NCBI GenBank assembly: GCA_018268465.1
Contig: JAFDWN010000004.1
Location: forward strand, 103,474 to 167,473
From: Actinomycetota bacterium
GTDB lineage: Bacteria; Actinomycetota; Actinomycetes; Mycobacteriales; Mycobacteriaceae
Direction: 5' to 3'
Length of the DNA: 64,000 bases
Part shown: positions 26,864 through 36,001 of the stretch, piece after piece
Position numbering within the stretch: position 1 is the first letter of the stretch
Layout of the letters: every line of letters begins with the position of its first letter
The notes under the pieces: model-generated
The model's input: only the letters and a program-made list of their open reading frames with translations
Databases searched by the model: none
What the model was told of the DNA's origin: nothing
Program-made: the position numbers and the translations under genes

Positions 26864-26960
26864 AGAAGACCTCTGTAATCGAAGCAGCCGAAGTTCTTCT
26901 CGGCCCGCCCGGGACCCCTGCCCCGGGTGAACCGCACGAACACGAACTGTGGAGACCCCC

Positions 26961-27482
26961 ATGCCTTTTGACGATTCCATCGCCGAGAACATCAAGACCT
27001 CCCTCGCCGAGATCCCCCACCCCGCACTGCCCAAGGGGTCGAACATCTACGGCGGCACCAAGATCTTCCCCGACTACAAGGCCGAGAACGGCGAGAGCTA
27101 CTTCACGCTGGTCCACGGCATTGCGCACGAGTCGTCGGTCAGCTTCGTTGCCGTACTCCAGGCGACGCGCGCGCTGCGCAAGGGTTTCGAGTCGGCGATC
27201 TACTTCTACGGCCCCGGTGCCATCAACTGCCTTGCCACACGCGGCTTTCCGAAAACGGGCGACTCGGGGTTCCCCGGCGAACAAAACATCAACGATGCGC
27301 TCGCGACGTTCATCGGCGAAGGCGGAACCGTGTTCTGCTGCCGGTTCGGACTCGCCCTGCACGGCGGGCGGGAAGAGGATCTGATCGAAGGCGTGATTCC
27401 GGCCCATCCTCTCGACGTCCAGGACGCGCTGATCCACTACGCGCGCAAGGGCGCGATCATCAACTCGACCTACATGGTCTAG
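26961..27482 (+). CDS. MSMEG_0572/Sll0783-family nitrogen starvation response protein
   Basis: A 173-aa DsrE-like protein that opens Nit1C clusters in mycobacteria and cyanobacteria. Recognisable segments are SNIYGGTKIFPDYKAENGES, YFYGPGAINCLATRGFPKTG and the C-terminal GAIINSTYMV. The biochemical role is not established. The ATG at 26961 has GGAG six bases upstream; an in-frame GTG at 26949 is less likely. It is followed 33 bases later by the nitrilase. The family is known to be induced by nitrogen limitation, which agrees with the GlnR-like box upstream. Confidence 0.88.
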   Translation: MPFDDSIAENIKTSLAEIPHPALPKGSNIYGGTKIFPDYKAENGESYFTLVHGIAHESSVSFVAVLQATRALRKGFESAIYFYGPGAINCLATRGFPKTGDSGFPGEQNINDALATFIGEGGTVFCCRFGLALHGGREEDLIEGVIPAHPLDVQDALIHYARKGAIINSTYMV

Positions 27483-27515: not shown

Positions 27516-28415
27516 ATGACAACACTTGCTGCCGTCGCGGCGAACTTCACCCGCGACCTCGAACAGAACTACGCCGTGATCACCTCGCTGGCCGAGGAGG
27601 CGCGTGACCGGGGTGTCGATCTCCTCGTGCTGCCCGAAGCCGCGATCGGCGGGTATCTCTCGTCGCTGGGCAACCACGGCGACACGGTCAAGACCACCAC
27701 CCGCTCACTTCCACCGGCCATCCGCGTGGACGGACCCGAGATCGCCCGCGTCCAGCAGATCGTCGGCGACCTGGTGATCGCCATCGGGTTCTGCGAACTG
27801 GACGCGGACGGCGAGACCCGCTACAACGCCGCGGCGGTGCTGGACGGCGGCACCGTGTACGGAACCTACCGCAAGGTCCACCAGCCGCTCGGGGAGGGTA
27901 TGTCCTACTCGGCAGGCTCGACGTACGGCGTATTCGACACCCCGGTGGGCCGCGTCGGCCTGCAAATCTGCTACGACAAAGCCTTTCCCGAGGCGGCACG
28001 CATCATGGCCCTCGACGGGGCACAGATCATCGCGAGCCTGTCGGCCTGGCCGGCGGCCCGCACGGCGACCGCCGAAAATCTGCAGGACGACCGCTGGACC
28101 TATCGGTTCAACCAGTTCGACGTCGCCCGTGCGCTGGACAACCAGGTGTTCTGGGTGGCGTCCAACCAGAGCGGGACGTTCGGCTCGCTGCGCTACGTCG
28201 GCAACGCCAAGGTGGTCGACCCGGGCGGGAACATCCTGGCGACCACACTTCTCGGCGGCGGGATGGCCGTCGCCGACGTCGACATCGACACCACCTTCCG
28301 AGCCATGCGGGCCGGCATGTTCCACCTTCGCGACCGTAGGCCCGACGTGTACGGCCCGGTGTCACAGGCCGACGACCCGGCCACGGCGAAGTGGCGGGAG
28401 CTGGCCCATGCCTGA
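27516..28415 (+). CDS. Nit6803-family nitrilase (catalytic triad intact)
   Basis: A 299-aa aliphatic nitrilase of the Nit1 branch, hydrolysing nitriles to carboxylate and ammonia. The Glu-Lys-Cys triad is complete: Glu41 in LPEAAIGGY, Lys120 in YRKVHQP, and Cys152 in LQICYDKAFPEAAR. It starts at an ATG and ends overlapping the next small gene. In other bacteria this enzyme and its cluster permit use of cyanide-derived nitrogen. A second, altered copy lies at 33966-34808 in the same cluster. Confidence 0.93.
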   Translation: MTTLAAVAANFTRDLEQNYAVITSLAEEARDRGVDLLVLPEAAIGGYLSSLGNHGDTVKTTTRSLPPAIRVDGPEIARVQQIVGDLVIAIGFCELDADGETRYNAAAVLDGGTVYGTYRKVHQPLGEGMSYSAGSTYGVFDTPVGRVGLQICYDKAFPEAARIMALDGAQIIASLSAWPAARTATAENLQDDRWTYRFNQFDVARALDNQVFWVASNQSGTFGSLRYVGNAKVVDPGGNILATTLLGGGMAVADVDIDTTFRAMRAGMFHLRDRRPDVYGPVSQADDPATAKWRELAHA

Positions 28416-28704
28416 GATGACGTTCGAGGTGCGCTGGCCGGACGGCAGCGCGGCCCGGTACTACTCCCCCAGCCTGGTCATGCACGACTATCTCGTCGCG
28501 GGCACGTCCTACACCGTCGCCGACTTCGCCGACAGATCGGACCGCGCACTCATCGAAGCCGGCGAGCGGGTGCGGGCGAAGTTCGGATTCGCCTGCACGT
28601 CGGCGGCCGCAACCAACGCGCAGATCGCCGACACCGCATGCCGATACCCCTCCGACGCGCTGATCGACGTCATCGCGATGCAACCCGGCCTGGAGACGAT
28701 ATGA
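28408..28704 (+). CDS. MSMEG_0570-family nitrogen starvation response protein
   Basis: A 98-aa protein found only in Nit1C clusters, function unknown. It contains WPDGSAARYYSPSLVMHDYL, a conserved YTVADF segment and two cysteine-free helices near TAC-RYPSDALIDVI. The ATG at 28408 overlaps the nitrilase end by eight bases, and the stop overlaps the next ATG (ATGA), so it is tightly coupled to both neighbours. No membrane segment or signal peptide. Confidence 0.85.
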   Translation: MPEMTFEVRWPDGSAARYYSPSLVMHDYLVAGTSYTVADFADRSDRALIEAGERVRAKFGFACTSAAATNAQIADTACRYPSDALIDVIAMQPGLETI

Positions 28705-29978
28705 GCACCACCGAACACATCCCCGTCGTGATCATCGGCGGCGGTCAGGCCGGCCTGTCGGTCAGCTGGTATCTCGGACGCGCCGGCGTCGACCACGTCG
28801 TGCTGGAGGCGCACACCCCCGTGCACGCCTGGGCGGACAGCCGCTGGGACAATTTCACCCTCGTCACCCCGAACTGGCACTGCCGCCTGCCCGGCTACTC
28901 CTACGACGGCCCCGAGCCCGACGGATTCATGACCCGCGACGAGGTGGTGGACTGGCTGGCCGGCTGGCTGGATACGTTCAGCCCGCCGGTGCGCGACCAC
29001 ACCCGCGTGACCCGGCTACGTCCGTCGCGCGACGGGGGTTTCGAACTCACCGTCGAACAGCACGGCGCCGTGCGGACAATGACCTGCGAGCATGCGGTGA
29101 TCGCCACGGGCGGCTACCCGCTGCCGGTGCTGCCCCCGTTCGCCGGCTCGCTGGACCCTGCGGTCACCCAGATCCACTCGGAGCAGTACCGCAACGCCGG
29201 CCAACTTCCCGAGGGCGCAGTACTGGTCGTGGGATCGGGTCAGTCGGGCGCCCAGATCGCCGAGGACCTCCACCTGGCCGGGCGGCAGGTCCACCTGGCC
29301 GTCGGCAACGCCCCGCGCGTGGCACGCTTCTACCGTGGCCGCGACTGTATGACGTGGCTCGCCGATATGGGGCTCTACGACAAGGCCGCCCAGGAGTATC
29401 CCGGCGGCAAGGCGGCCATTGAGAAGACGAACCACTACGTCACCGGACGCGACGGCGGGCGCGACGTCGACCTGCGGCAATTCGCCGTGGAGGGTATGCG
29501 GCTCTACGGCGTGCTCAGCGACGGCAAAGACGCGACGCTGCGGTTCGAGCCGACCCTCGGCGGTGCGCTCGACCACGCCGATTCGGTGTACAACTCGATC
29601 TGCGCCGACATCGATGCCCACATCACCAGGGCGGGCGTCGACGCCCCGCCGGCGTCGCGCTATGAACCGGTGTGGGCTCCGGAGGCCGAACTCACCTCAT
29701 TGGACCTGGTGGCGGAGGGCATTTCCAGCATCGTGTGGGCCATCGGTTATCGGCCCGACTACCGCTGGATCGAAGCGAGTGCGTTCGACGGCGGCGGCAG
29801 GCCGATGCAGAACCGCGGCGTCACCGGGGTCACCGGTCTGAGTTTCGTCGGTCTGCCCTGGATGCACACCTGGGGTTCGGGACGGTTCCTCGGCATCGAC
29901 CGCGATGCCTCGCACATCGCGGCGACCATCATCAGCAGCTACCACGAGTCGGTGCTGCGGCTGGCCGTGGGTCACTAG
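28701..29978 (+). CDS. MSMEG_0569-family flavin-dependent oxidoreductase
   Basis: A 425-aa FAD/NADPH monooxygenase-like enzyme. It has an N-terminal FAD-binding GGGQAGLSVSWYLGRAG motif, a second dinucleotide fold GSGQSGAQIAEDL at about residue 175, and a late WAIGYRPDYRWIE strand that contacts FAD. It is a constant member of Nit1C clusters, presumably oxidising the cluster's substrate before or after nitrile hydrolysis; the real substrate is unknown. The start overlaps the stop of the preceding gene. Confidence 0.88.
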   Translation: MSTTEHIPVVIIGGGQAGLSVSWYLGRAGVDHVVLEAHTPVHAWADSRWDNFTLVTPNWHCRLPGYSYDGPEPDGFMTRDEVVDWLAGWLDTFSPPVRDHTRVTRLRPSRDGGFELTVEQHGAVRTMTCEHAVIATGGYPLPVLPPFAGSLDPAVTQIHSEQYRNAGQLPEGAVLVVGSGQSGAQIAEDLHLAGRQVHLAVGNAPRVARFYRGRDCMTWLADMGLYDKAAQEYPGGKAAIEKTNHYVTGRDGGRDVDLRQFAVEGMRLYGVLSDGKDATLRFEPTLGGALDHADSVYNSICADIDAHITRAGVDAPPASRYEPVWAPEAELTSLDLVAEGISSIVWAIGYRPDYRWIEASAFDGGGRPMQNRGVTGVTGLSFVGLPWMHTWGSGRFLGIDRDASHIAATIISSYHESVLRLAVGH

Positions 29979-29999: not shown

Positions 30000-31457
30000 A
30001 TGACTGTACGACAGACATTCTCGCGGATCATTACCGCGCGTGCACAGCGCAACCCGCACGAGGTCGTGGTACGTAGCGACCACGAAGGGGTGGATGTCAC
30101 CGCCGCCGAACTCGACGCGCACAGCAACCGGCTGGCCCGCGAGTACCTGGCGCGCGGCGTCGGCCGTGACGACCTGGTCGCGGTCGGGTTGCCCACGGGG
30201 GCCGAGTTCGTGGCGGCGTGCGTGGCGATCTGGAAGCTGGGCGCCACCCCGCACCCGCTGTCCCCGGCGCTGTCGCGCACCGACCGCGCGGCGCTGGAGG
30301 AGTCGGGCCGCCCCGCGCTGGCACTCGGCGCCCGCCCCGTCGAACCGTCGATCCCCTGGCTGCCTTCCGGATTCGTCCCGACGGCCGCCGGCACGATACT
30401 CCCCGACGCGTGGGCACACAGCTGGAAGGCACCCACGTCGTCGGGCAGTACCGGACGCCCCAAGATCGTCACATCCACCGCTCCCGCGCTGCTCGACCCC
30501 GACCGGCCGGTCGCGCCGTTCCTGCCGAGACGGGCCGTACAACTGGTGACCGCGCCGCTGTGGCACTCCGCGGCCTTCACGTATGCCTTCCGCGGGCTGC
30601 TCACCGGGCACCGGCTGGTGCTGACCGGCGGATTCGAGGAACACCGCTTCGCCGAGCTGGTCTCGCGGCACCGAATCACCTGGACCCTGCTGTCTCCCAG
30701 CATGATTCGCCGCCTGGTCCGGCTGACCGGACGCCCGTCGCTGGATTCACTGGAATCGGTGCTGCACATGGGTGCCCCGTGCGCCCCTGCCGACAAACGC
30801 GCCCTGATCGATCTGCTCGGCCCCTCGCGGGTCGTCGAAGTCTACGCGGGCAGCGAATCCAACGGCCTGACCATGATCACCGGTGCGGAGTGGCTGGCCA
30901 AGCCGGGTAGCGTCGGAAAACCCATCGGCGGCACGCAGATCGCCATCCGGCGCGCCGATGGTTCCGCCGCGGCGCCGCACGAGGTCGGTCAGGTGTGGAT
31001 GCACCGCGGCAACCTCCCCGCCTACCGCTATCTCGGCGCGGCCACCAGGCGGACCGGCGACGGCTGGGACACCCTGGGCGACCTCGGGATGCTCGACGAG
31101 GACGGCTATCTCACCATCGTGGAACGCGCCGACGACGTGATCGTGTCGGACGGGGTCACCGTCTATCCGTCCCGCGTCGAACACGCACTGGCGGCCCATC
31201 CGGCGGTACGCGACGCGGTCGTGTATCCGGCGCGCACCGGCCCCGGACACACCCGGGTGGCCGCCGTCGTCGAGGTGGCCGACGACGGCGTCGACGCCGC
31301 CGCCGTGCTGGCATACGCCGGCAGACGCCTGACGCCGGCGGAGCTGCCGTCCCTGATCGACATCACGCGCCACCCGCTGCGCAACGAAGCGGGGAAGGTC
31401 CGTCGCAGCACCTTCCGGCCCGCCGCATACACCGCCCGTGTCCCCGAAAGCGCCTAG
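30000..31457 (+). CDS. AMP-binding (class I adenylate-forming) ligase of the Nit1C cluster
   Basis: A 485-aa acyl-CoA synthetase-like enzyme that activates a carboxylic acid as acyl-AMP. The P-loop SSGSTGRPKIV, the EVYAGSESNG motif, GDLGMLDEDGYL with the ribose-binding Asp, and the C-terminal EAGKVRR lysine are all present. It starts 21 bases after the flavin oxidoreductase and ends shortly before the radical SAM gene. The natural acid substrate is unknown; an acid released by the neighbouring nitrilase is possible. Confidence 0.85.
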   Translation: MTVRQTFSRIITARAQRNPHEVVVRSDHEGVDVTAAELDAHSNRLAREYLARGVGRDDLVAVGLPTGAEFVAACVAIWKLGATPHPLSPALSRTDRAALEESGRPALALGARPVEPSIPWLPSGFVPTAAGTILPDAWAHSWKAPTSSGSTGRPKIVTSTAPALLDPDRPVAPFLPRRAVQLVTAPLWHSAAFTYAFRGLLTGHRLVLTGGFEEHRFAELVSRHRITWTLLSPSMIRRLVRLTGRPSLDSLESVLHMGAPCAPADKRALIDLLGPSRVVEVYAGSESNGLTMITGAEWLAKPGSVGKPIGGTQIAIRRADGSAAAPHEVGQVWMHRGNLPAYRYLGAATRRTGDGWDTLGDLGMLDEDGYLTIVERADDVIVSDGVTVYPSRVEHALAAHPAVRDAVVYPARTGPGHTRVAAVVEVADDGVDAAAVLAYAGRRLTPAELPSLIDITRHPLRNEAGKVRRSTFRPAAYTARVPESA

Positions 31458-31467
31458 GAGAATCGTC

Positions 31468-32532
31468 ATGCCCGCTGCGTCCGCTTCCACCCGCGTCGAC
31501 CTGGCCCTGCTGGGCATCAGGGGGCGACCACCGGTCAGCCGCGACGCCGGCGCCGGACCCAGCGACGACGGCCATCTGGTGGTCGACGGGCTCAACGCGG
31601 CGATCCCCCGCAACCCGTCGAGCCCGTTCGTCTTCGACGGTGACCGGGTACTGTTCGACGGCACGGACACCGGACTGGACGTCGAGGTCGTCGAGCGGCC
31701 CGCGTTCTATGACCTGGCCACTGCCGACGGGGTGCCCTACGAGAAGCTGGCGCGCCTGCACGGACGCAACGTGCTGGCCACGACGGTGGTGCAGACCTGT
31801 GTGCGCTACGCCGAGGACCAGCGTTGCCGGTTCTGTTCGATCGAGGAGTCGCTGCGCAGCGGCGCGACGACGGCGGTGAAGCGACCGGCCGAACTCGCGG
31901 AGGTGGCCGAGGCCGCCGTCCGGCTCGACGGTGTCACCCAGATGGTGATGACCACCGGCACGTCGGCGGGCAGCGATCGGGGTGCGCGGCATCTGGCACG
32001 GTGTGTGCGGGCCGTCAAAGAGGCGGTGCCGCAGCTGCCGGTCCAGGTGCAATGCGAACCGCCCGCCGACCTGAAGATCATCACCGAGCTGCGTGATGCG
32101 GGCGCGGATTCCATTGGGATCCACGTCGAATCGCTCGACGACGCGGTGCGGCGGCGCTGGATGCCCGGCAAGGCCACGGTGCCGCTCGCGCAGTACCGCG
32201 CAGCCTGGCGCGAAGCGGTGCGGGTGTTCGGCCGCAACCAGGTGTCGACGTATCTTCTCGTCGGACTCGGCGAGGAGCCCGACGATCTGATCGCCGGCGC
32301 CGCCGATCTGATCGCCATGGGGGTCTACCCGTTCGTGGTGCCGTTCCGCCCGCATCGCGGCACGCTGGCGGTCGATGTCGACGGGGCCGGGGCCCCCGAT
32401 GCCGCGGTGCTGGAGAAGGTCTCCCGAGAGGTGGCGGCCCTGCTTCGGATGTCGGGGATGGCGGGCGCCGACCAGCGGGCGGGTTGCGCGTCCTGCGGGG
32501 CGTGCGGCGTCCTGCAGAGCCTGGGCGGGTGA
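31468..32532 (+). CDS. MSMEG_0568-family radical SAM protein with C-x8-C-x2-C motif
   Basis: A 354-aa radical SAM enzyme of Nit1C clusters. The cluster-binding cysteines are Cys111, Cys120 and Cys123 (CVRYAEDQRCRFC), spaced C-x8-C-x2-C instead of the common C-x3-C-x2-C. A second cysteine group, CASCGAC, lies at the C-terminus and may hold an auxiliary Fe-S cluster. TTGTSAGSDRG and the IGIHVES barrel strands support a SAM TIM-barrel. The ATG at 31468 has AGGAG seven bases upstream. The reaction is unknown. Confidence 0.88.
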   Translation: MPAASASTRVDLALLGIRGRPPVSRDAGAGPSDDGHLVVDGLNAAIPRNPSSPFVFDGDRVLFDGTDTGLDVEVVERPAFYDLATADGVPYEKLARLHGRNVLATTVVQTCVRYAEDQRCRFCSIEESLRSGATTAVKRPAELAEVAEAAVRLDGVTQMVMTTGTSAGSDRGARHLARCVRAVKEAVPQLPVQVQCEPPADLKIITELRDAGADSIGIHVESLDDAVRRRWMPGKATVPLAQYRAAWREAVRVFGRNQVSTYLLVGLGEEPDDLIAGAADLIAMGVYPFVVPFRPHRGTLAVDVDGAGAPDAAVLEKVSREVAALLRMSGMAGADQRAGCASCGACGVLQSLGG

Positions 32533-32536
32533 GGTG

Positions 32537-33964
32537 ATGCGCGACATGATCGGGCCGCAGCGGGGCCATGAGTTGTCCATTTTGTCCGGCACCCGGCGGA
32601 TCGATGCACCCGCGGGGTTTCTCATCCACCCCGCCGACGGCCGCGACGAGATCGAGCAGTACCGCCGGCTGCGCCGCGCGGCGTTCGTCGTCGACCAGGG
32701 CCTATTCCGCGGCAGCGACCATGACGACCTCGATGACGATCCGCGCACCGTCGTGCTGGTGGCGACCGCATCCGACGGGACGGTGCTCGGCGGCGTCCGG
32801 TTGGCGCCGCGCACCACCACAGATATCGGCTGGTGGACCGGAAGCCGCCTGGTCACCGACACCGCGGTGCGCGCATCGGGGCTGGGTCCCGCCCTGGTCC
32901 GTGCGGCGTGCGCGCACGCCGAATCCGCCGGGGTGCTGCGTTTCGAAGCCACGGTGCAGCGCCGGTACCTGGCCATGTTCACCGCGCTGGGCTGGGAGAT
33001 GCTCGGCGACTGCCTGCTGGGTGAGCGTCCGCACGTGCGGATGCGCTGGCCGATCCACCGGGTCCAGCGGTCCGCGAACGCCACGAAGTCGTTCCTCGGT
33101 GACGTGCTGCGCCCGCTGTCCGGAGTTGCCGGCGGGCTCGGACCTGCAGGTTTCGTCGGCGACGACGGCGTACCCGTGCCCGGCAGCGACGTCGTCGCCG
33201 CATGTGATGCAATCATCCCGTCCATGGTGGAACGCGATCCGGAGTGGGCGGGGTGGTGTTCGGTGCTGGTCAACGTCAACGACCTGACGGCGATGGGCGC
33301 GTCGCCCACCGGCCTGCTCGACGCCGTGGGCGCGCCGACACGCTCACTGCTGACCCGGATCGTCCGCGGCATCGCCAAGGCTTCCCACTCCTGGCAGGTG
33401 CCGGTGCTGGGCGGCCATACTCAGCTCGGCGTGCCGGCGTCGCTGTCGGTGACGGCACTGGGCCGGACCCGCCGACCCGTACCTGCCGGTGGCGGCGCCG
33501 CCGGCGACGAGGTGCGGATCACCGCCGACCTGTCCGGCGGTTGGCGCCCGGGTTACCATGGCCGCCAATGGGATTCGACCAGCGGCCGGCGCCGCGACGA
33601 GCTCGCCCGCATGACTTCCCTGGTCGCCGAGATGCGCCCGCACGCGGCCAAGGACGTCAGTATGGCGGGGACGGTGGGCACGCTCGGGATGCTGGCCGAG
33701 GCCAGCGGCACGGGCGCCGAGATCGACGTCGCAGCGGTGCCGCGTCCGGCCGGCGCCGACATGGGCGCATGGCTGACCTGCTTTCCGGGCTTCGCGATGC
33801 TCACCGCCGGTGACGGCGGCGCGGCCGTCCCGGCCATGCCCGCAGGTGTGGTGAGCGAGGTGTGTGGCCGGCTCACCTCCCGGCCCGGTGTGCGGCTGCG
33901 CTGGCCCGACGGGGAGCTCACCGACGCGCTGACACCGGAGGTGACGGGGTTGGGGAGGGCATGA
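32537..33964 (+). CDS. MSMEG_0567/Sll0787-family GNAT-AIR synthase fusion protein
   Basis: A 475-aa two-domain protein. Residues about 1-165 are a GNAT acetyltransferase-like domain (EIEQYRRLRRAAFVVDQG, then VTDTAVRASGLGPALVRAAC for acetyl-CoA binding). Residues about 180-475 are an AIR-synthase/PurM-like ATP-dependent domain (LVNVNDLTAMGASPTGLLDA, VLGGHTQLGVPASLSVTALG). In some genomes these are two separate genes; here they are fused. It starts five bases after the radical SAM stop and ends next to the second nitrilase. Role in the cluster unknown. Confidence 0.85.
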   Translation: MRDMIGPQRGHELSILSGTRRIDAPAGFLIHPADGRDEIEQYRRLRRAAFVVDQGLFRGSDHDDLDDDPRTVVLVATASDGTVLGGVRLAPRTTTDIGWWTGSRLVTDTAVRASGLGPALVRAACAHAESAGVLRFEATVQRRYLAMFTALGWEMLGDCLLGERPHVRMRWPIHRVQRSANATKSFLGDVLRPLSGVAGGLGPAGFVGDDGVPVPGSDVVAACDAIIPSMVERDPEWAGWCSVLVNVNDLTAMGASPTGLLDAVGAPTRSLLTRIVRGIAKASHSWQVPVLGGHTQLGVPASLSVTALGRTRRPVPAGGGAAGDEVRITADLSGGWRPGYHGRQWDSTSGRRRDELARMTSLVAEMRPHAAKDVSMAGTVGTLGMLAEASGTGAEIDVAAVPRPAGADMGAWLTCFPGFAMLTAGDGGAAVPAMPAGVVSEVCGRLTSRPGVRLRWPDGELTDALTPEVTGLGRA

Positions 33965-33965
33965 A

Positions 33966-34808
33966 TTGGCACCGATAACGATAGCGGCGGTGGCCGCCCA
34001 CTTCGGCCGGGACGTCGACCGCGGGGTCAGCAAGGTCGTCGGCATCGTCGATGCGGCGACCCGGGAGGGCGTGCAGCTTCTCGTGTTTCCAGACGCCTGC
34101 CTGGGCGGCTACATCGGCGATCTGCGCGCACCCGACCCCGATGATCCGCCACCGGCGCTCGACCCCGACGGCCCGGAGATCGCGGCCGTCATCGCCGCCG
34201 CCGGGCCGATGACGGTGTGTCTGGGCTACGCGGAGGCCGCGATCGGGGGCCGGTACAACTCGGCGATCTGTGTATCGGGCGAGGGGGTGCTGGGCGCGCA
34301 CCGCAAGGTCCACCAGCCCGCCGGTGAAGGTCTGACCTATCTGGCGGGTGATTCGTTCTCGGCGTTCGACACCCCGGTGGGCCGGATCGGGATGCTCATC
34401 GACTACGACAAAACCTTCCCCGAGTCCGCGCGGGCGCTGGCGCTCGACGGCGCGATGATCATCGCCGCGTTGTCGGCGTGGCCCGCCAGCGTCACGGACC
34501 GAGCGTCGCGGCTGCCGGCCGACCGCCAATCACGGCTGTTCGACCTCTACGACTGCGCCCGCGCGGCGGAGAACCAGGTGGTGCTGGTGTCGTCGAATCA
34601 GACGGGGATCATGGGTTCTCTGCGCTTCCTCGGCCAGGCCAAGGTGGTCGGGCCCGGCGGTGAGATCCTGGCGACCACCCGCTCCAAGGGTGGCCTGGCC
34701 AAGGTGGATATCGATGTGGACGCCGAGATCGGCCGCGCCAGAAGGGTATTGAACCATCTGACGGAACGCCGGCTGGACGCCTACCACACCACGGCACCGG
34801 GGCGGTAG
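33966..34808 (+). CDS. Second nitrilase paralogue lacking the catalytic Cys (pseudoenzyme)
   Basis: A 280-aa nitrilase-family protein clearly paralogous to the one at 27516-28415, sharing YRKVHQP-like HRKVHQPAGEG, FDTPVGRIG and LSAWPAS. The nucleophile Cys is Asp146 (LIDYDKTFPES, codon GAC at 34401-34403), and the catalytic Glu is Asp43 (FPDACLGGY). Lys114 is kept. The reading frame is intact and the fold residues are conserved, so it is not a decaying pseudogene by appearance. It starts at a TTG overlapping the end of the GNAT-AIR gene region. It may form mixed oligomers with the active nitrilase or bind ligand. Confidence 0.85.
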   Translation: MAPITIAAVAAHFGRDVDRGVSKVVGIVDAATREGVQLLVFPDACLGGYIGDLRAPDPDDPPPALDPDGPEIAAVIAAAGPMTVCLGYAEAAIGGRYNSAICVSGEGVLGAHRKVHQPAGEGLTYLAGDSFSAFDTPVGRIGMLIDYDKTFPESARALALDGAMIIAALSAWPASVTDRASRLPADRQSRLFDLYDCARAAENQVVLVSSNQTGIMGSLRFLGQAKVVGPGGEILATTRSKGGLAKVDIDVDAEIGRARRVLNHLTERRLDAYHTTAPGR

Positions 34809-34810
34809 CC

Positions 34811-36001
34811 GTGCGGGTCGCATTGATCACGTATTCCACCAAACCCCGCGGCGGTGTGGTGCACACGCTCGATCTCGCCGAGGCGCTGGCGGCGATCGGC
34901 GTCGAGGTGACCGTCTGGTCACTGGCCCGGCAGGGCGACCGGGGGTTCTTCCGGCCCGTGGACAGCCGGGTGGCATTGCGGCTCATCGAGTTTCCCGACC
35001 GCCCGGACGAATCGGTGACCGATCGGATCGTGCGCTCGATCGACGCGATGCGCCGCGCATTCACCCCGGATCGCTACGACATCGTGCACGCTCAGGACTG
35101 CATCAGCGCCAATGCCGTCGGGACATGTATCCGCACCATCCACCATCTCGACCAGTTCACCACCCCGATCCTGGTCGAATGCCACGAGAAGGCCGTCGTG
35201 GAACCGTACGCGCGCATCTGCGTCTCGGCGGCGGTGGCCGCCGAAGTGGCCGCGGGCTGGGGACTGCGGCCGACCGTGATCCCCAATGGCGTTCGTGCGC
35301 AGCGTTTCACCGCGGCGGCCGCCGATCCGGCAGCACAACGGCGGTGGACGGACGAGCTGGGGAGCTACGTGCTGACGGTCGGCGGTATCGAGCCCCGCAA
35401 GGGCACCGTCGACCTGGTCGAGGCGTACCACCTTTTCCGGCAGCGTGTTCCGGACGTCGCGTTGGTGATCGCCGGGGGCGAAACACTTTTCGACTACCGC
35501 GATTACCGGGCGGAGTTCGAACGCCGGTGCGCACGTCTCGGCGTCGAACCCGTCATCCTGGGCGCGGTGGCCGACGGCGAACTGCCCGGCCTCGTCGCGG
35601 CCGCCGCGGTGTTCGCGTTCCCGTCCACCAAGGAGGGTTTCGGGCTCGCGGCGATGGAGGCGCTGGCGGCCGGCCGGCCCGTCGTCGCGCGGGATCTGCC
35701 CGTCCTGCGTGAGGTGTTCGGCGACACCGTGCGGTATGCGTCGGATGTGCGGGGACTCGCCGACGGGCTGGTTTCCGCGGTCGGAGACCGCAATCCGGCA
35801 CCAGCGGTCGGAGACCGCAATCCGGCACCAGCGGTCGGAGACCGCAATCCGGCACCAGCGGTCGGAGACCGCAATCCGGCACCAGCGGTGGCAGGCGCCA
35901 GGGCGGAGGCGGGGCGCGCGCTGGCGGAGTCGATGACCTGGGCGGCCGCGGCGCGGGCGCACGTCGCGTTCTACCGGGACCATCCGAAACCGGCGCATTG
36001 A
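34811..36001 (+). CDS. MSMEG_0565-family GT4 glycosyltransferase
   Basis: A 396-aa retaining glycosyltransferase that closes Nit1C clusters. GT-B features are the N-terminal KPRGGVVHTLDLAEAL glycine-rich loop, IPNGV, GGIEPRKGTVDLVEAY, and the nucleotide-sugar binding FPSTKEGFGLAAMEALAAG Glu-x7-Glu motif. Donor and acceptor are unknown. Four perfect 27-bp repeats near the C-terminus (35777-35884) encode repeated AVGDRNPAP units. GTG start at 34811, two bases after the nitrilase paralogue stop. Confidence 0.88.
   Translation: MRVALITYSTKPRGGVVHTLDLAEALAAIGVEVTVWSLARQGDRGFFRPVDSRVALRLIEFPDRPDESVTDRIVRSIDAMRRAFTPDRYDIVHAQDCISANAVGTCIRTIHHLDQFTTPILVECHEKAVVEPYARICVSAAVAAEVAAGWGLRPTVIPNGVRAQRFTAAAADPAAQRRWTDELGSYVLTVGGIEPRKGTVDLVEAYHLFRQRVPDVALVIAGGETLFDYRDYRAEFERRCARLGVEPVILGAVADGELPGLVAAAAVFAFPSTKEGFGLAAMEALAAGRPVVARDLPVLREVFGDTVRYASDVRGLADGLVSAVGDRNPAPAVGDRNPAPAVGDRNPAPAVGDRNPAPAVAGARAEAGRALAESMTWAAAARAHVAFYRDHPKPAH
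35777..35884 (+). repeat. Four perfect 27-bp in-frame tandem repeats (VNTR) in the glycosyltransferase
   Basis: Four identical units start at 35777, 35804, 35831 and 35858, encoding AVGDRNPAP each. The unit contains GGTC-GGA-GACC, a small dyad. Being a multiple of three, copy-number changes keep the frame. Perfect identity suggests recent expansion. Confidence 0.95.

What the first reader, a model, noticed from the sequence alone, without database searches (positions are those of the whole stretch)
33966..34808. Nit1C cluster contains a second nitrilase with the catalytic Cys changed to Asp
Both nitrilases in this cluster align across the active site. The first has the Glu41-Lys120-Cys152 triad; the second has Asp43-Lys114-Asp146. 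Losing the nucleophile while keeping the frame, the Lys and the surrounding fold argues for a selected pseudoenzyme. Nit1C clusters normally carry one nitrilase. Nitrilases form helical oligomers, so a mixed filament in which the dead subunit regulates the active one is plausible.
Basis: partly seen in the sequence, partly recalled or inferred. Interest (0 to 1): 0.78.

Follow-up and report, generated by a model that had tools for sequence, protein, structure and literature searches.

The report
Conserved cysteine-less nitrilase in Nit1C-type operon
Next to a normal nitrilase, this mycobacterial operon carries a second copy whose catalytic cysteine seems to have become aspartate once, long ago; the aspartate has been kept in relatives across many actinobacteria, so it looks like a selected protein with a changed job, not a decaying gene.

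Summary
Confirmed and extended. The second nitrilase-fold gene (33966-34808; "NitAsp") reads D43-K114-E121-D146 where the first (27516-28415; "NitCys") reads E41-K120-E127-C152. NitAsp is no local accident: of 110 fetched relatives nearer to NitAsp than to NitCys, 106 have Asp at the nucleophile; the other four keep Cys and fall outside the one clade of all Asp rows. Purifying selection equals that on the Cys copy (median dN/dS 0.063 and 0.059, 126 close pairs). All 35 Mycobacterium genomes with NitAsp (of 248) also hold NitCys (one partial). So "selected pseudoenzyme" is well supported. The mixed filament is not: both copies lack the second spiral-forming insertion, NitAsp's distances follow the radical-SAM and glycosyltransferase genes more than NitCys (partial r -0.15), and the glycosyltransferase is the next cluster gene in 103 of 105 loci. 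Neither nitrilase scores as the Nit6803/NitC family that defines Nit1C; the operon is of the MSMEG_0565-0572 ("gpr") type. Best guess: a repurposed, ligand-binding nitrilase-fold protein serving the rSAM/GNAT/AIR/GT part of the pathway. New Asp-based chemistry and a heterodimer with NitCys are not excluded.

The parts
33966..34808 (+). NitAsp: nitrilase-fold paralogue with Asp146 in place of the catalytic Cys and Asp43 in place of the catalytic Glu (stop codon included)
   Evidence: AlphaFold2 pLDDT 96.4
34401..34403 (+). codon 146, GAC (Asp) at the nucleophile position
27516..28415 (+). NitCys: paralogue with intact E41-K120-E127-C152
   Evidence: AlphaFold2 pLDDT 89.8
26949..27482 (+). TIGR04044 MSMEG_0572/Sll0783 family nitrogen starvation response protein, first gene of the cluster
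   Evidence: 257 bits, cut-off 109.85
28408..28704 (+). TIGR04042 MSMEG_0570 family protein; its start overlaps the end of NitCys
   Evidence: 117.5 bits, cut-off 79.85
28638..29978 (+). TIGR04046 MSMEG_0569 family flavin-dependent oxidoreductase (ORF as listed; the ATG at 28701-28703 is the likelier start)
   Evidence: (630 bits, cut-off 498.35)
30000..31457 (+). AMP-forming acyl-CoA ligase-like protein, an optional member of the cluster
31438..32532 (+). TIGR04043 MSMEG_0568 family radical SAM protein
   Evidence: 516 bits, cut-off 303.7
32375..33964 (+). GNAT (TIGR04045) and AIR-synthase-like domain (TIGR04050) in one ORF
   Evidence: 87.6 bits, cut-off 68.45; 501 bits, cut-off 312.2
34811..36001 (+). 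TIGR04047 MSMEG_0565 family glycosyltransferase, 2 bases after NitAsp
   Evidence: 459 bits, cut-off 259.85

Best explanation
NitAsp arose by duplication of a nitrilase-superfamily protein in an actinobacterial Nit1C-type nitrogen-starvation operon (trees; the deepest order is not settled). One copy lost the Cys nucleophile and the Glu base and fixed Asp at the nucleophile (SHOWN: all Asp rows in one clade, no Cys row in it). It should not run the family's Cys-thioester chemistry (INFERRED from the missing nucleophile). It is predicted to fold as a complete nitrilase (confident model) and keeps a conserved pocket and a strongly conserved helix at pocket and interface (SHOWN as conservation; the place of the helix is recalled). 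I infer that it still binds an amide-, nitrile- or carbamoyl-type pathway intermediate, as homodimer or with another operon protein, and acts as a binding, hand-over or regulatory subunit for the rSAM/GNAT/AIR/GT arm rather than as a dead subunit in a NitCys filament. Rough odds: maintained function 0.97; no classical nitrilase or amidase activity 0.9; non-catalytic ligand-binding as main function 0.45.
For: One clade for the Asp rows: 100/96 (38 Asp of 97 rows), 99/98 (21 Asp of 63 rows). Asp in 105 of 105 NitAsp-nearest rows of the first loci and 106 of 110 with other classes added. dN/dS median 0.063 in 126 close pairs from 61 loci, against NitCys 0.059, rSAM 0.086, AIR 0.101, FAD 0.112 (123 pairs), GT 0.149, MSMEG_0572-like 0.034; in 27 disjoint pairs NitAsp is lower than NitCys in 17. 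In 38 non-redundant NitAsp rows 61 of 280 columns are invariant, among them K114, H116, D146, W172, P173, N203, N211. In 96 taxon-matched loci segment 184-204 has entropy 0.29 against 0.63 in NitCys, and 14 against 6 of 21 columns invariant. Model pLDDT 96.4, pTM 0.93; best PDB matches are carbamoylputrescine amidase and PH0642-type amidase; titles include Cys mutants with bound amide (6ypa C146A with glutaramide, 4izs C145A with butyramide), so a Cys-less pocket of this fold can still bind. Link to the operon: NitAsp in 35 of the 36 Mycobacterium genomes with TIGR04043 above its cut-off; the glycosyltransferase is the next recognised cluster gene in 103 of 105 loci. Over 88 loci distances track rSAM (r 0.881) and GT (0.822) more than NitCys (0.773).
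Against: No ligand, activity or interaction is known. The binding role is argued from conservation and from engineered mutants of other enzymes. A fixed Asp beside a fixed Lys and Glu is also what a new active site would look like. The two loops with the former Glu (39-50) and with Lys and the second Glu (113-128) are slightly more variable in NitAsp than in NitCys (entropy 0.50 against 0.39, 0.63 against 0.54; invariant 4 against 6 of 12 and 5 against 7 of 16). Distance correlations within one operon are confounded by shared descent and gene exchange; AIR (0.721) and MSMEG_0572-like (0.678) correlate less with NitAsp than NitCys does, FAD about as well (0.785) with partial r 0.334. By presence NitAsp goes with the flavin oxidoreductase, which is on the NitCys side: both 27, neither 14, one only 4 of 45 class genomes, but all 14 'neither' are one family. 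Two clusters with the flavin gene do without NitAsp (G284, G466), so it is not essential everywhere, and G274 keeps NitAsp with neither NitCys nor rSAM found.
Confidence: 0.47

Rival explanations
1. Regulatory hetero-oligomer: NitAsp pairs with NitCys (dimer or larger assembly) and tunes or stabilises it.
For: Nearly every genome with NitAsp also has NitCys (35 of 35 Mycobacterium, one of them partial; 28 of 29 other class genomes with NitAsp, two of them partial at the match). In 10 of 105 loci the two are neighbours among the recognised cluster genes. All 6 non-catalytic positions fixed differently in the two copies lie in the helix after the elbow, the 187-203 helix or the C-terminal segment, which I recall as parts of the superfamily's A-surface; 23 of 70 conserved columns lie there, P 0.0008, with the two helices alone 4 of 6, P 0.034; regions chosen after seeing the data.
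Against: No specific co-variation of NitAsp with NitCys (partial r -0.146); NitCys moves with the MSMEG_0570-like and FAD genes; it is clearly unlinked in G957, while in G958, G959 and G960 contig ends leave this open; NitAsp persists alone in G274; both lack the region-2 spiral insertion. Position 188 differs because of a change on the NitCys side: Q188 is also in the other Cys relatives read.
Confidence: 0.22
2. New chemistry: Asp146 with Lys114 and Glu121 forms a changed active site (general acid/base or carboxylate nucleophile) for another reaction, for example on a cyanohydrin, nitrile or amide of the pathway.
For: Asp146 is fixed throughout the clade, not merely 'not Cys', while the former Glu base position drifts (D, H, G, Q); Lys114 is kept in 106 of 106 and Glu121 in 105 of 106; segments 139-160, 165-180 and 184-204 are more constrained than in the Cys copy.
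Against: No precedent that I know of, and none seen in the listings, for a natural Asp nucleophile in this superfamily; most conserved positions are also those needed for fold and binding; the pathway is unknown, so no missing reaction can be named.
Confidence: 0.2
3. Plain scaffold: NitAsp is kept only as a structural protein that holds operon enzymes such as the glycosyltransferase or the GNAT-AIR protein together; the pocket is incidental.
For: Constant place before the glycosyltransferase (103 of 105) and a strongly conserved helix.
Against: A pure scaffold should let Lys114, Glu121, His116, Trp172 and Asp146 drift; they have not.
Confidence: 0.1
4. Decaying duplicate or sequencing artefact.
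For: Little: the window's assembly is estimated 5.86% contaminated.
Against: dN/dS about 0.06, no stop inside any of the 35 Mycobacterium copies, the one-stop flags of four class genomes lie at the next-to-last codon of the match, Asp in 106 loci.
Confidence: 0.01

Closest known systems
Nit1C cluster (Podar 2005, PMC1199592; NitC of Pseudomonas, PMC11049912; passages seen)
   Same: MSMEG_0572/Sll0783-type protein, radical SAM, GNAT, AIR-like, MSMEG_0570-like and flavin oxidoreductase genes; Nit1C serves cyanide assimilation as nitrogen source in Pseudomonas
   Different: No subfamily-1/Nit6803 nitrilase scores in the cluster; two paralogues of another nitrilase-superfamily branch stand in its place, one without Cys; GNAT and AIR are one ORF; a glycosyltransferase (also present in some Nit1C clusters) and an AMP-ligase are added
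gpr operon MSMEG_0565-0572 of M. smegmatis (PMC6039565; PMC4222082; PMC4617892; passages seen)
   Same: Same gene families by NCBIfam name; MSMEG_0566 lies between MSMEG_0565 and MSMEG_0567 by number, as NitAsp does here. Published: GlnR-dependent induction and peroxide resistance under nitrogen lack for the whole operon; msmeg_0566 8.94-fold and msmeg_0571 48-fold higher in wild type than in the glnR mutant under nitrogen starvation; expression ratios 2.96 and 4.06 under nitrogen limitation in continuous culture
   Different: The papers call MSMEG_0566 an aliphatic amidase; the passages I saw do not mention a missing Cys. I did not have the M. smegmatis sequence, so its residue is not checked. 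The window has an AMP-ligase gene in addition
N-carbamoylputrescine amidase (AguB, MtCPA 5h8i-5h8l) and PH0642-type amidase (1j31, 6ypa, 3ivz)
   Same: Fold, and best sequence and structure matches
   Different: About 25-27% identity by structure alignment; far below the AguB equivalog cut-off (74.9 and 112.5 bits, cut-off 410.25); NitAsp lacks Cys and Glu
Filament-forming nitrilases (CynD, Nit6803; PMC4700190, passages)
   Same: Superfamily fold
   Different: No region-2 insertion in NitAsp or NitCys (18 aa against 32)

Membership tests
Nitrilase superfamily (PF00795) | CN_hydrolase domain above Pfam's gathering score | tested here: met
   106.1 bits at the NitAsp place, cut-off 23.2; AlphaFold2 model matches solved members at TM 0.79-0.85 in the first 20 rows
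Catalytically competent nitrilase superfamily enzyme | Glu-Lys-Cys catalytic triad | tested here: not met
   D43-K114-D146 in the window; 106 of 110 rows nearest NitAsp lack the Cys, the other four lie outside its clade
Nit1C cluster | subfamily-1 (Nit6803, TIGR04048) nitrilase | tested here: not met
   41.4 and 31.7 bits, cut-off 502.6; 0 of 248 Mycobacterium genomes above the cut-off
Nit1C cluster | radical SAM, GNAT, AIR-like, flavin oxidoreductase, MSMEG_0570 and MSMEG_0572/Sll0783-type genes together | tested here: met
   TIGR04043, 04045, 04050, 04046, 04042, 04044 all above cut-off; the narrower AIR model TIGR04049 is below its cut-off (172.9 of 321.3)
N-carbamoylputrescine amidase (TIGR03381) | score above the curated equivalog cut-off | tested here: not met
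   NitAsp 74.9, NitCys 112.5, cut-off 410.25
Spiral-forming nitrilase | two C-surface insertions | tested here: not met
   region 2 is 18 aa in all 38 NitAsp and 45 NitCys rows against 32 in a Nit6803-like protein; region 1 median 43 (42-44) and 49 (41-69) against 53, so for NitCys region 1 is not clear-cut (definition from passages of PMC4700190)
Pseudoenzyme | no catalytic activity although the fold is kept | not testable with these tools
   Sequence criterion met; activity needs an assay
Pseudoenzyme | kept by selection rather than decaying | tested here: met
   dN/dS median 0.063 in 126 close pairs; 61 of 280 columns invariant in 38 rows

The most novel reading that the evidence does not exclude
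NitAsp is not dead but has become an enzyme of a new kind within the nitrilase fold: the fixed Asp146 with Lys114 and Glu121 does carboxylate-based chemistry (for example on a cyanohydrin, nitrile or amide intermediate) in the actinobacterial Nit1C/gpr pathway, so that two neighbouring paralogues of one fold run two different reactions of one pathway.
Probability: 0.18. Interest if true: 0.82.

Novelty: new variant of a known kind. Interest (0 to 1): 0.56.

Why it matters
Nitrilase-superfamily proteins are recognised and annotated by a Cys-based active site. Here a clade across many Actinomycetes genera, with one relative found in another class (G955), is Cys-less yet tightly conserved, and in the M. 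smegmatis papers the gene in the same place is called 'aliphatic amidase'. The clade sits in an operon type with published phenotypes (GlnR control, peroxide resistance, biofilm growth under low nitrogen; PMC6039565, passages) but an unknown pathway, so its ligand would be a direct clue to what that pathway makes or removes. My searches of an open-licence library showed no paper on a natural nitrilase pseudoenzyme in their listings (33 and 69 list 15 of 42 and 12 of 29 papers).

Tried and rejected
Decay: rejected. Mixed filament: disfavoured. A natural fusion of the two nitrilases was not searched for as such; in the 96 loci with two hits the copies are in separate ORFs. Loss of NitAsp with the FAD gene as proof that they act together: only one family carries the double loss, too few independent events. 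The first tree (97 rows, redundancy cut at 82% identity; its outgroup is not one group and holds long branches) put three Cys sequences beside NitAsp (87/85). The second (63 rows: thinned to 21 of 38 NitAsp and 22 of 45 NitCys rows, three long outgroup rows dropped, nine new Cys rows added) puts them outside NitAsp plus NitCys, and holding NitAsp with all nine unlinked Cys rows is not rejected (p-AU 0.312), so the deepest order stays open. dN/dS over all pairs was set aside because NG86 dS looks saturated in these GC-rich genes (where median dN/dS of NitAsp was also at or below NitCys in all three bins); only close pairs were used. No atomic coordinates were available to me, so pocket and interface were not measured. 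A GlnR box was looked for by eye only and not settled. No supplementary files were read.

Full report
NAMES. NitAsp and NitCys are my labels for the second (33966-34808) and first (27516-28415) nitrilase-fold genes.

OBSERVATION. Both ORFs are open throughout and 48% identical over 277 columns. NitAsp has Asp at codon 34401-34403 (GAC), Asp43 for the catalytic Glu, and keeps Lys114 and the second Glu (121).

WHAT THE OPERON IS. NCBIfam places the neighbours above cut-off in the families named after MSMEG_0565, 0567, 0568, 0569, 0570 and 0572, so this is the actinobacterial relative of Nit1C. The nitrilase that defines Nit1C does not score: both copies get 41 and 32 bits against TIGR04048 (cut-off 502.6), and 0 of 248 Mycobacterium genomes pass that cut-off. 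The nearest models and structures are carbamoylputrescine amidase and PH0642-type amidases. In M. smegmatis the operon of these names is 'gpr', GlnR-induced; its deletion makes cells peroxide-sensitive in nitrogen-free medium and slows biofilm growth (PMC6039565, passages). MSMEG_0566, in the place of NitAsp, is called aliphatic amidase; its transcript is 8.94-fold higher in wild type than in a glnR mutant under nitrogen starvation (msmeg_0571 48-fold; PMC4222082), and its ratio is 2.96 in a continuous-culture nitrogen-limitation study (msmeg_0571 4.06; PMC4617892). Orthology with NitAsp is inferred from position; I had no M. smegmatis sequence.

DISTRIBUTION. Genus: 35 of 248 genomes hold NitAsp and all 35 hold NitCys, in G008 only a partial match at a contig end. 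36 of 248 hold the rSAM marker above cut-off, among them all 35; the odd one (G041) has a distant rSAM/GNAT pair on a 15.7-kb contig. Class: 49 of 394 genomes have a match at E 1e-40 or better: 33 with NitAsp (4 Mycobacterium, 29 others), 16 with NitCys alone (16 loci read). Of the 29, 28 have NitCys (partial in G444 and G460); G274 has neither NitCys nor rSAM at the thresholds used. Phylum: 8 of 376; among them G955, of another class, has both copies, and G707, G727 and G747 have Cys copies only. Class of G955: 1 of 198, G955 itself. Class of G707: 12 of 179; I read the 3 known and the 9 new genomes, all E-K-E-C.

THE RESIDUE. Rows nearest NitAsp in the first set of loci: 105 of 105 Asp. With loci L180-L185 added: 106 of 110; the four with Cys (L181, L182, L184, L185) are from G707, G727 and G747. 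In the 106: Lys114 106; Glu121 105 (Asp in L180); position 43 D 97, H 4, G 4, Q 1. Another 56 of 56 short loci agree, 22 of them new. Rows nearest NitCys: 113 of 114 E-K-E-C; the other is a partial copy in L121. The named loci are the best 80 of 437, so the sample leans to close relatives; some searches were drawn evenly from larger groups.

ORIGIN. The Asp rows form one clade in both trees (100/96; 99/98) and NitCys another (97/90; 96/89). In the second tree NitAsp, NitCys and five Cys copies from Nit1C-type clusters of the class of G707 form one clade (100/99); nine further Cys relatives lie outside it. So one change to Asp suffices. Whether the duplication came before or after the split of those five is not settled (97/87 joins them to NitCys; p-AU 0.312 for an alternative). 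The first tree had a broken outgroup and placed three of the nine beside NitAsp (87/85).

SELECTION. In 126 close pairs from 61 loci, NG86 dN/dS medians are NitAsp 0.063, NitCys 0.059, rSAM 0.086, AIR 0.101, FAD 0.112 (123 pairs), GT 0.149, MSMEG_0572-like 0.034. In 27 disjoint pairs NitAsp is below NitCys in 17: no clear difference.

SITES. Among 71 columns conserved at 90% or more in both copies, 7 are fixed differently: 146, 150, 188, 191, 201, 262, 267. The six other than 146 lie in the elbow helix, the 187-203 helix or the C-terminal stretch (P 0.0008; helices alone 4 of 6, P 0.034; regions named after the fact, and their role in the dimer is recalled). Q188 is shared with the other Cys relatives, so that change is on the NitCys side. 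In 96 taxon-matched loci the two copies are equally conserved overall (entropy 0.90 and 0.95; 61 and 56 of 280 invariant). Segment 184-204 is far more conserved in NitAsp (0.29 against 0.63; 14 against 6 of 21 invariant), while the loops 39-50 and 113-128 are slightly less so.

STRUCTURE. AlphaFold2 on alignments of 58 fetched sequences each: NitAsp pLDDT 96.4, pTM 0.93; NitCys 89.8 and 0.88. Foldseek rows for NitAsp include engineered Cys-less enzymes with bound amide (6ypa, 4izs; titles). This is the reason for putting ligand binding first.

PARTNER. Among recognised cluster genes, NitAsp is followed by the glycosyltransferase in 103 of 105 loci; upstream are AIR 55, FAD 32, NitCys 10, MSMEG_0570-like 6, none 2. 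Over 88 loci, distance correlations with NitAsp are rSAM 0.881, GT 0.822, FAD 0.785, NitCys 0.773, AIR 0.721, MSMEG_0572-like 0.678; partial with NitCys -0.146, rSAM 0.371, MSMEG_0572-like 0.356, FAD 0.334, GT 0.213, AIR 0.026; NitCys with FAD 0.897, partial 0.74. For four loci with no or a partial NitCys the genome has an 81-83% identical NitCys elsewhere: clearly unlinked in G957; in the other three the locus lies at a contig end, so linkage is open. Both lack the region-2 insertion of spiral nitrilases. By presence, NitAsp and the FAD gene go together (27 both, 14 neither, 4 one only, of 45), but the 14 are one family. I read this as a protein of the same pathway, not as a subunit tied to NitCys.

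MECHANISM. Shown: sequence of fold, pocket and Asp kept by selection; classical catalytic residues gone. Inferred: it binds a pathway intermediate and hands it over or senses it. Rivals: pairing with NitCys; new Asp chemistry. No experiment decides.

NOVELTY. I saw no paper on a natural nitrilase pseudoenzyme in this sense (search listings of an open-licence library). Conserved dead paralogues are a known kind in other families; this clade is a new variant of it.

Noticed in passing
L181, L185, L214, L216, L217, L218, L221: The Cys relatives outside the Nit1C-type operon are directly followed by an AsnB-type asparagine synthase gene in 7 of 9 loci (not found next to L184 and L222), a hint at the ancestral substrate field.
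   Followed up: partly
window 35777-35889: Perfect 27-base tandem repeat (4.2 copies) inside the glycosyltransferase ORF, coding a repeated VGDRNPAPA-like peptide.
   Followed up: no
L155 (G274): Lone NitAsp gene, 64% identical, still Asp146, with no recognised operon gene near it and no rSAM match in the genome; the next gene is an aldose 1-epimerase.
   Followed up: partly
L139-L151, L154 (14 genomes of one family, f20): Reduced clusters with NitCys but without NitAsp and without the flavin oxidoreductase above cut-off; the glycosyltransferase follows NitCys in 13 of the 14.
   Followed up: partly
window 28408-28415: NitCys ends in TGA overlapping the start of the MSMEG_0570-like gene. PMC6039565 (passage) proposes that the UGA of MSMEG_0571 is read as selenocysteine; here an ordinary overlapping gene start would do.
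   Followed up: no
31 places in 29 Mycobacterium genomes: Full-length Nit6803-like nitrilases at 451-485 bits, just under the TIGR04048 cut-off; none of these genomes is among those with NitAsp or with a TIGR04043 rSAM above cut-off.
   Followed up: no
window 30000-31457: AMP-forming ligase gene inside the operon; in other genomes it is absent or stands in other places of the cluster.
   Followed up: no
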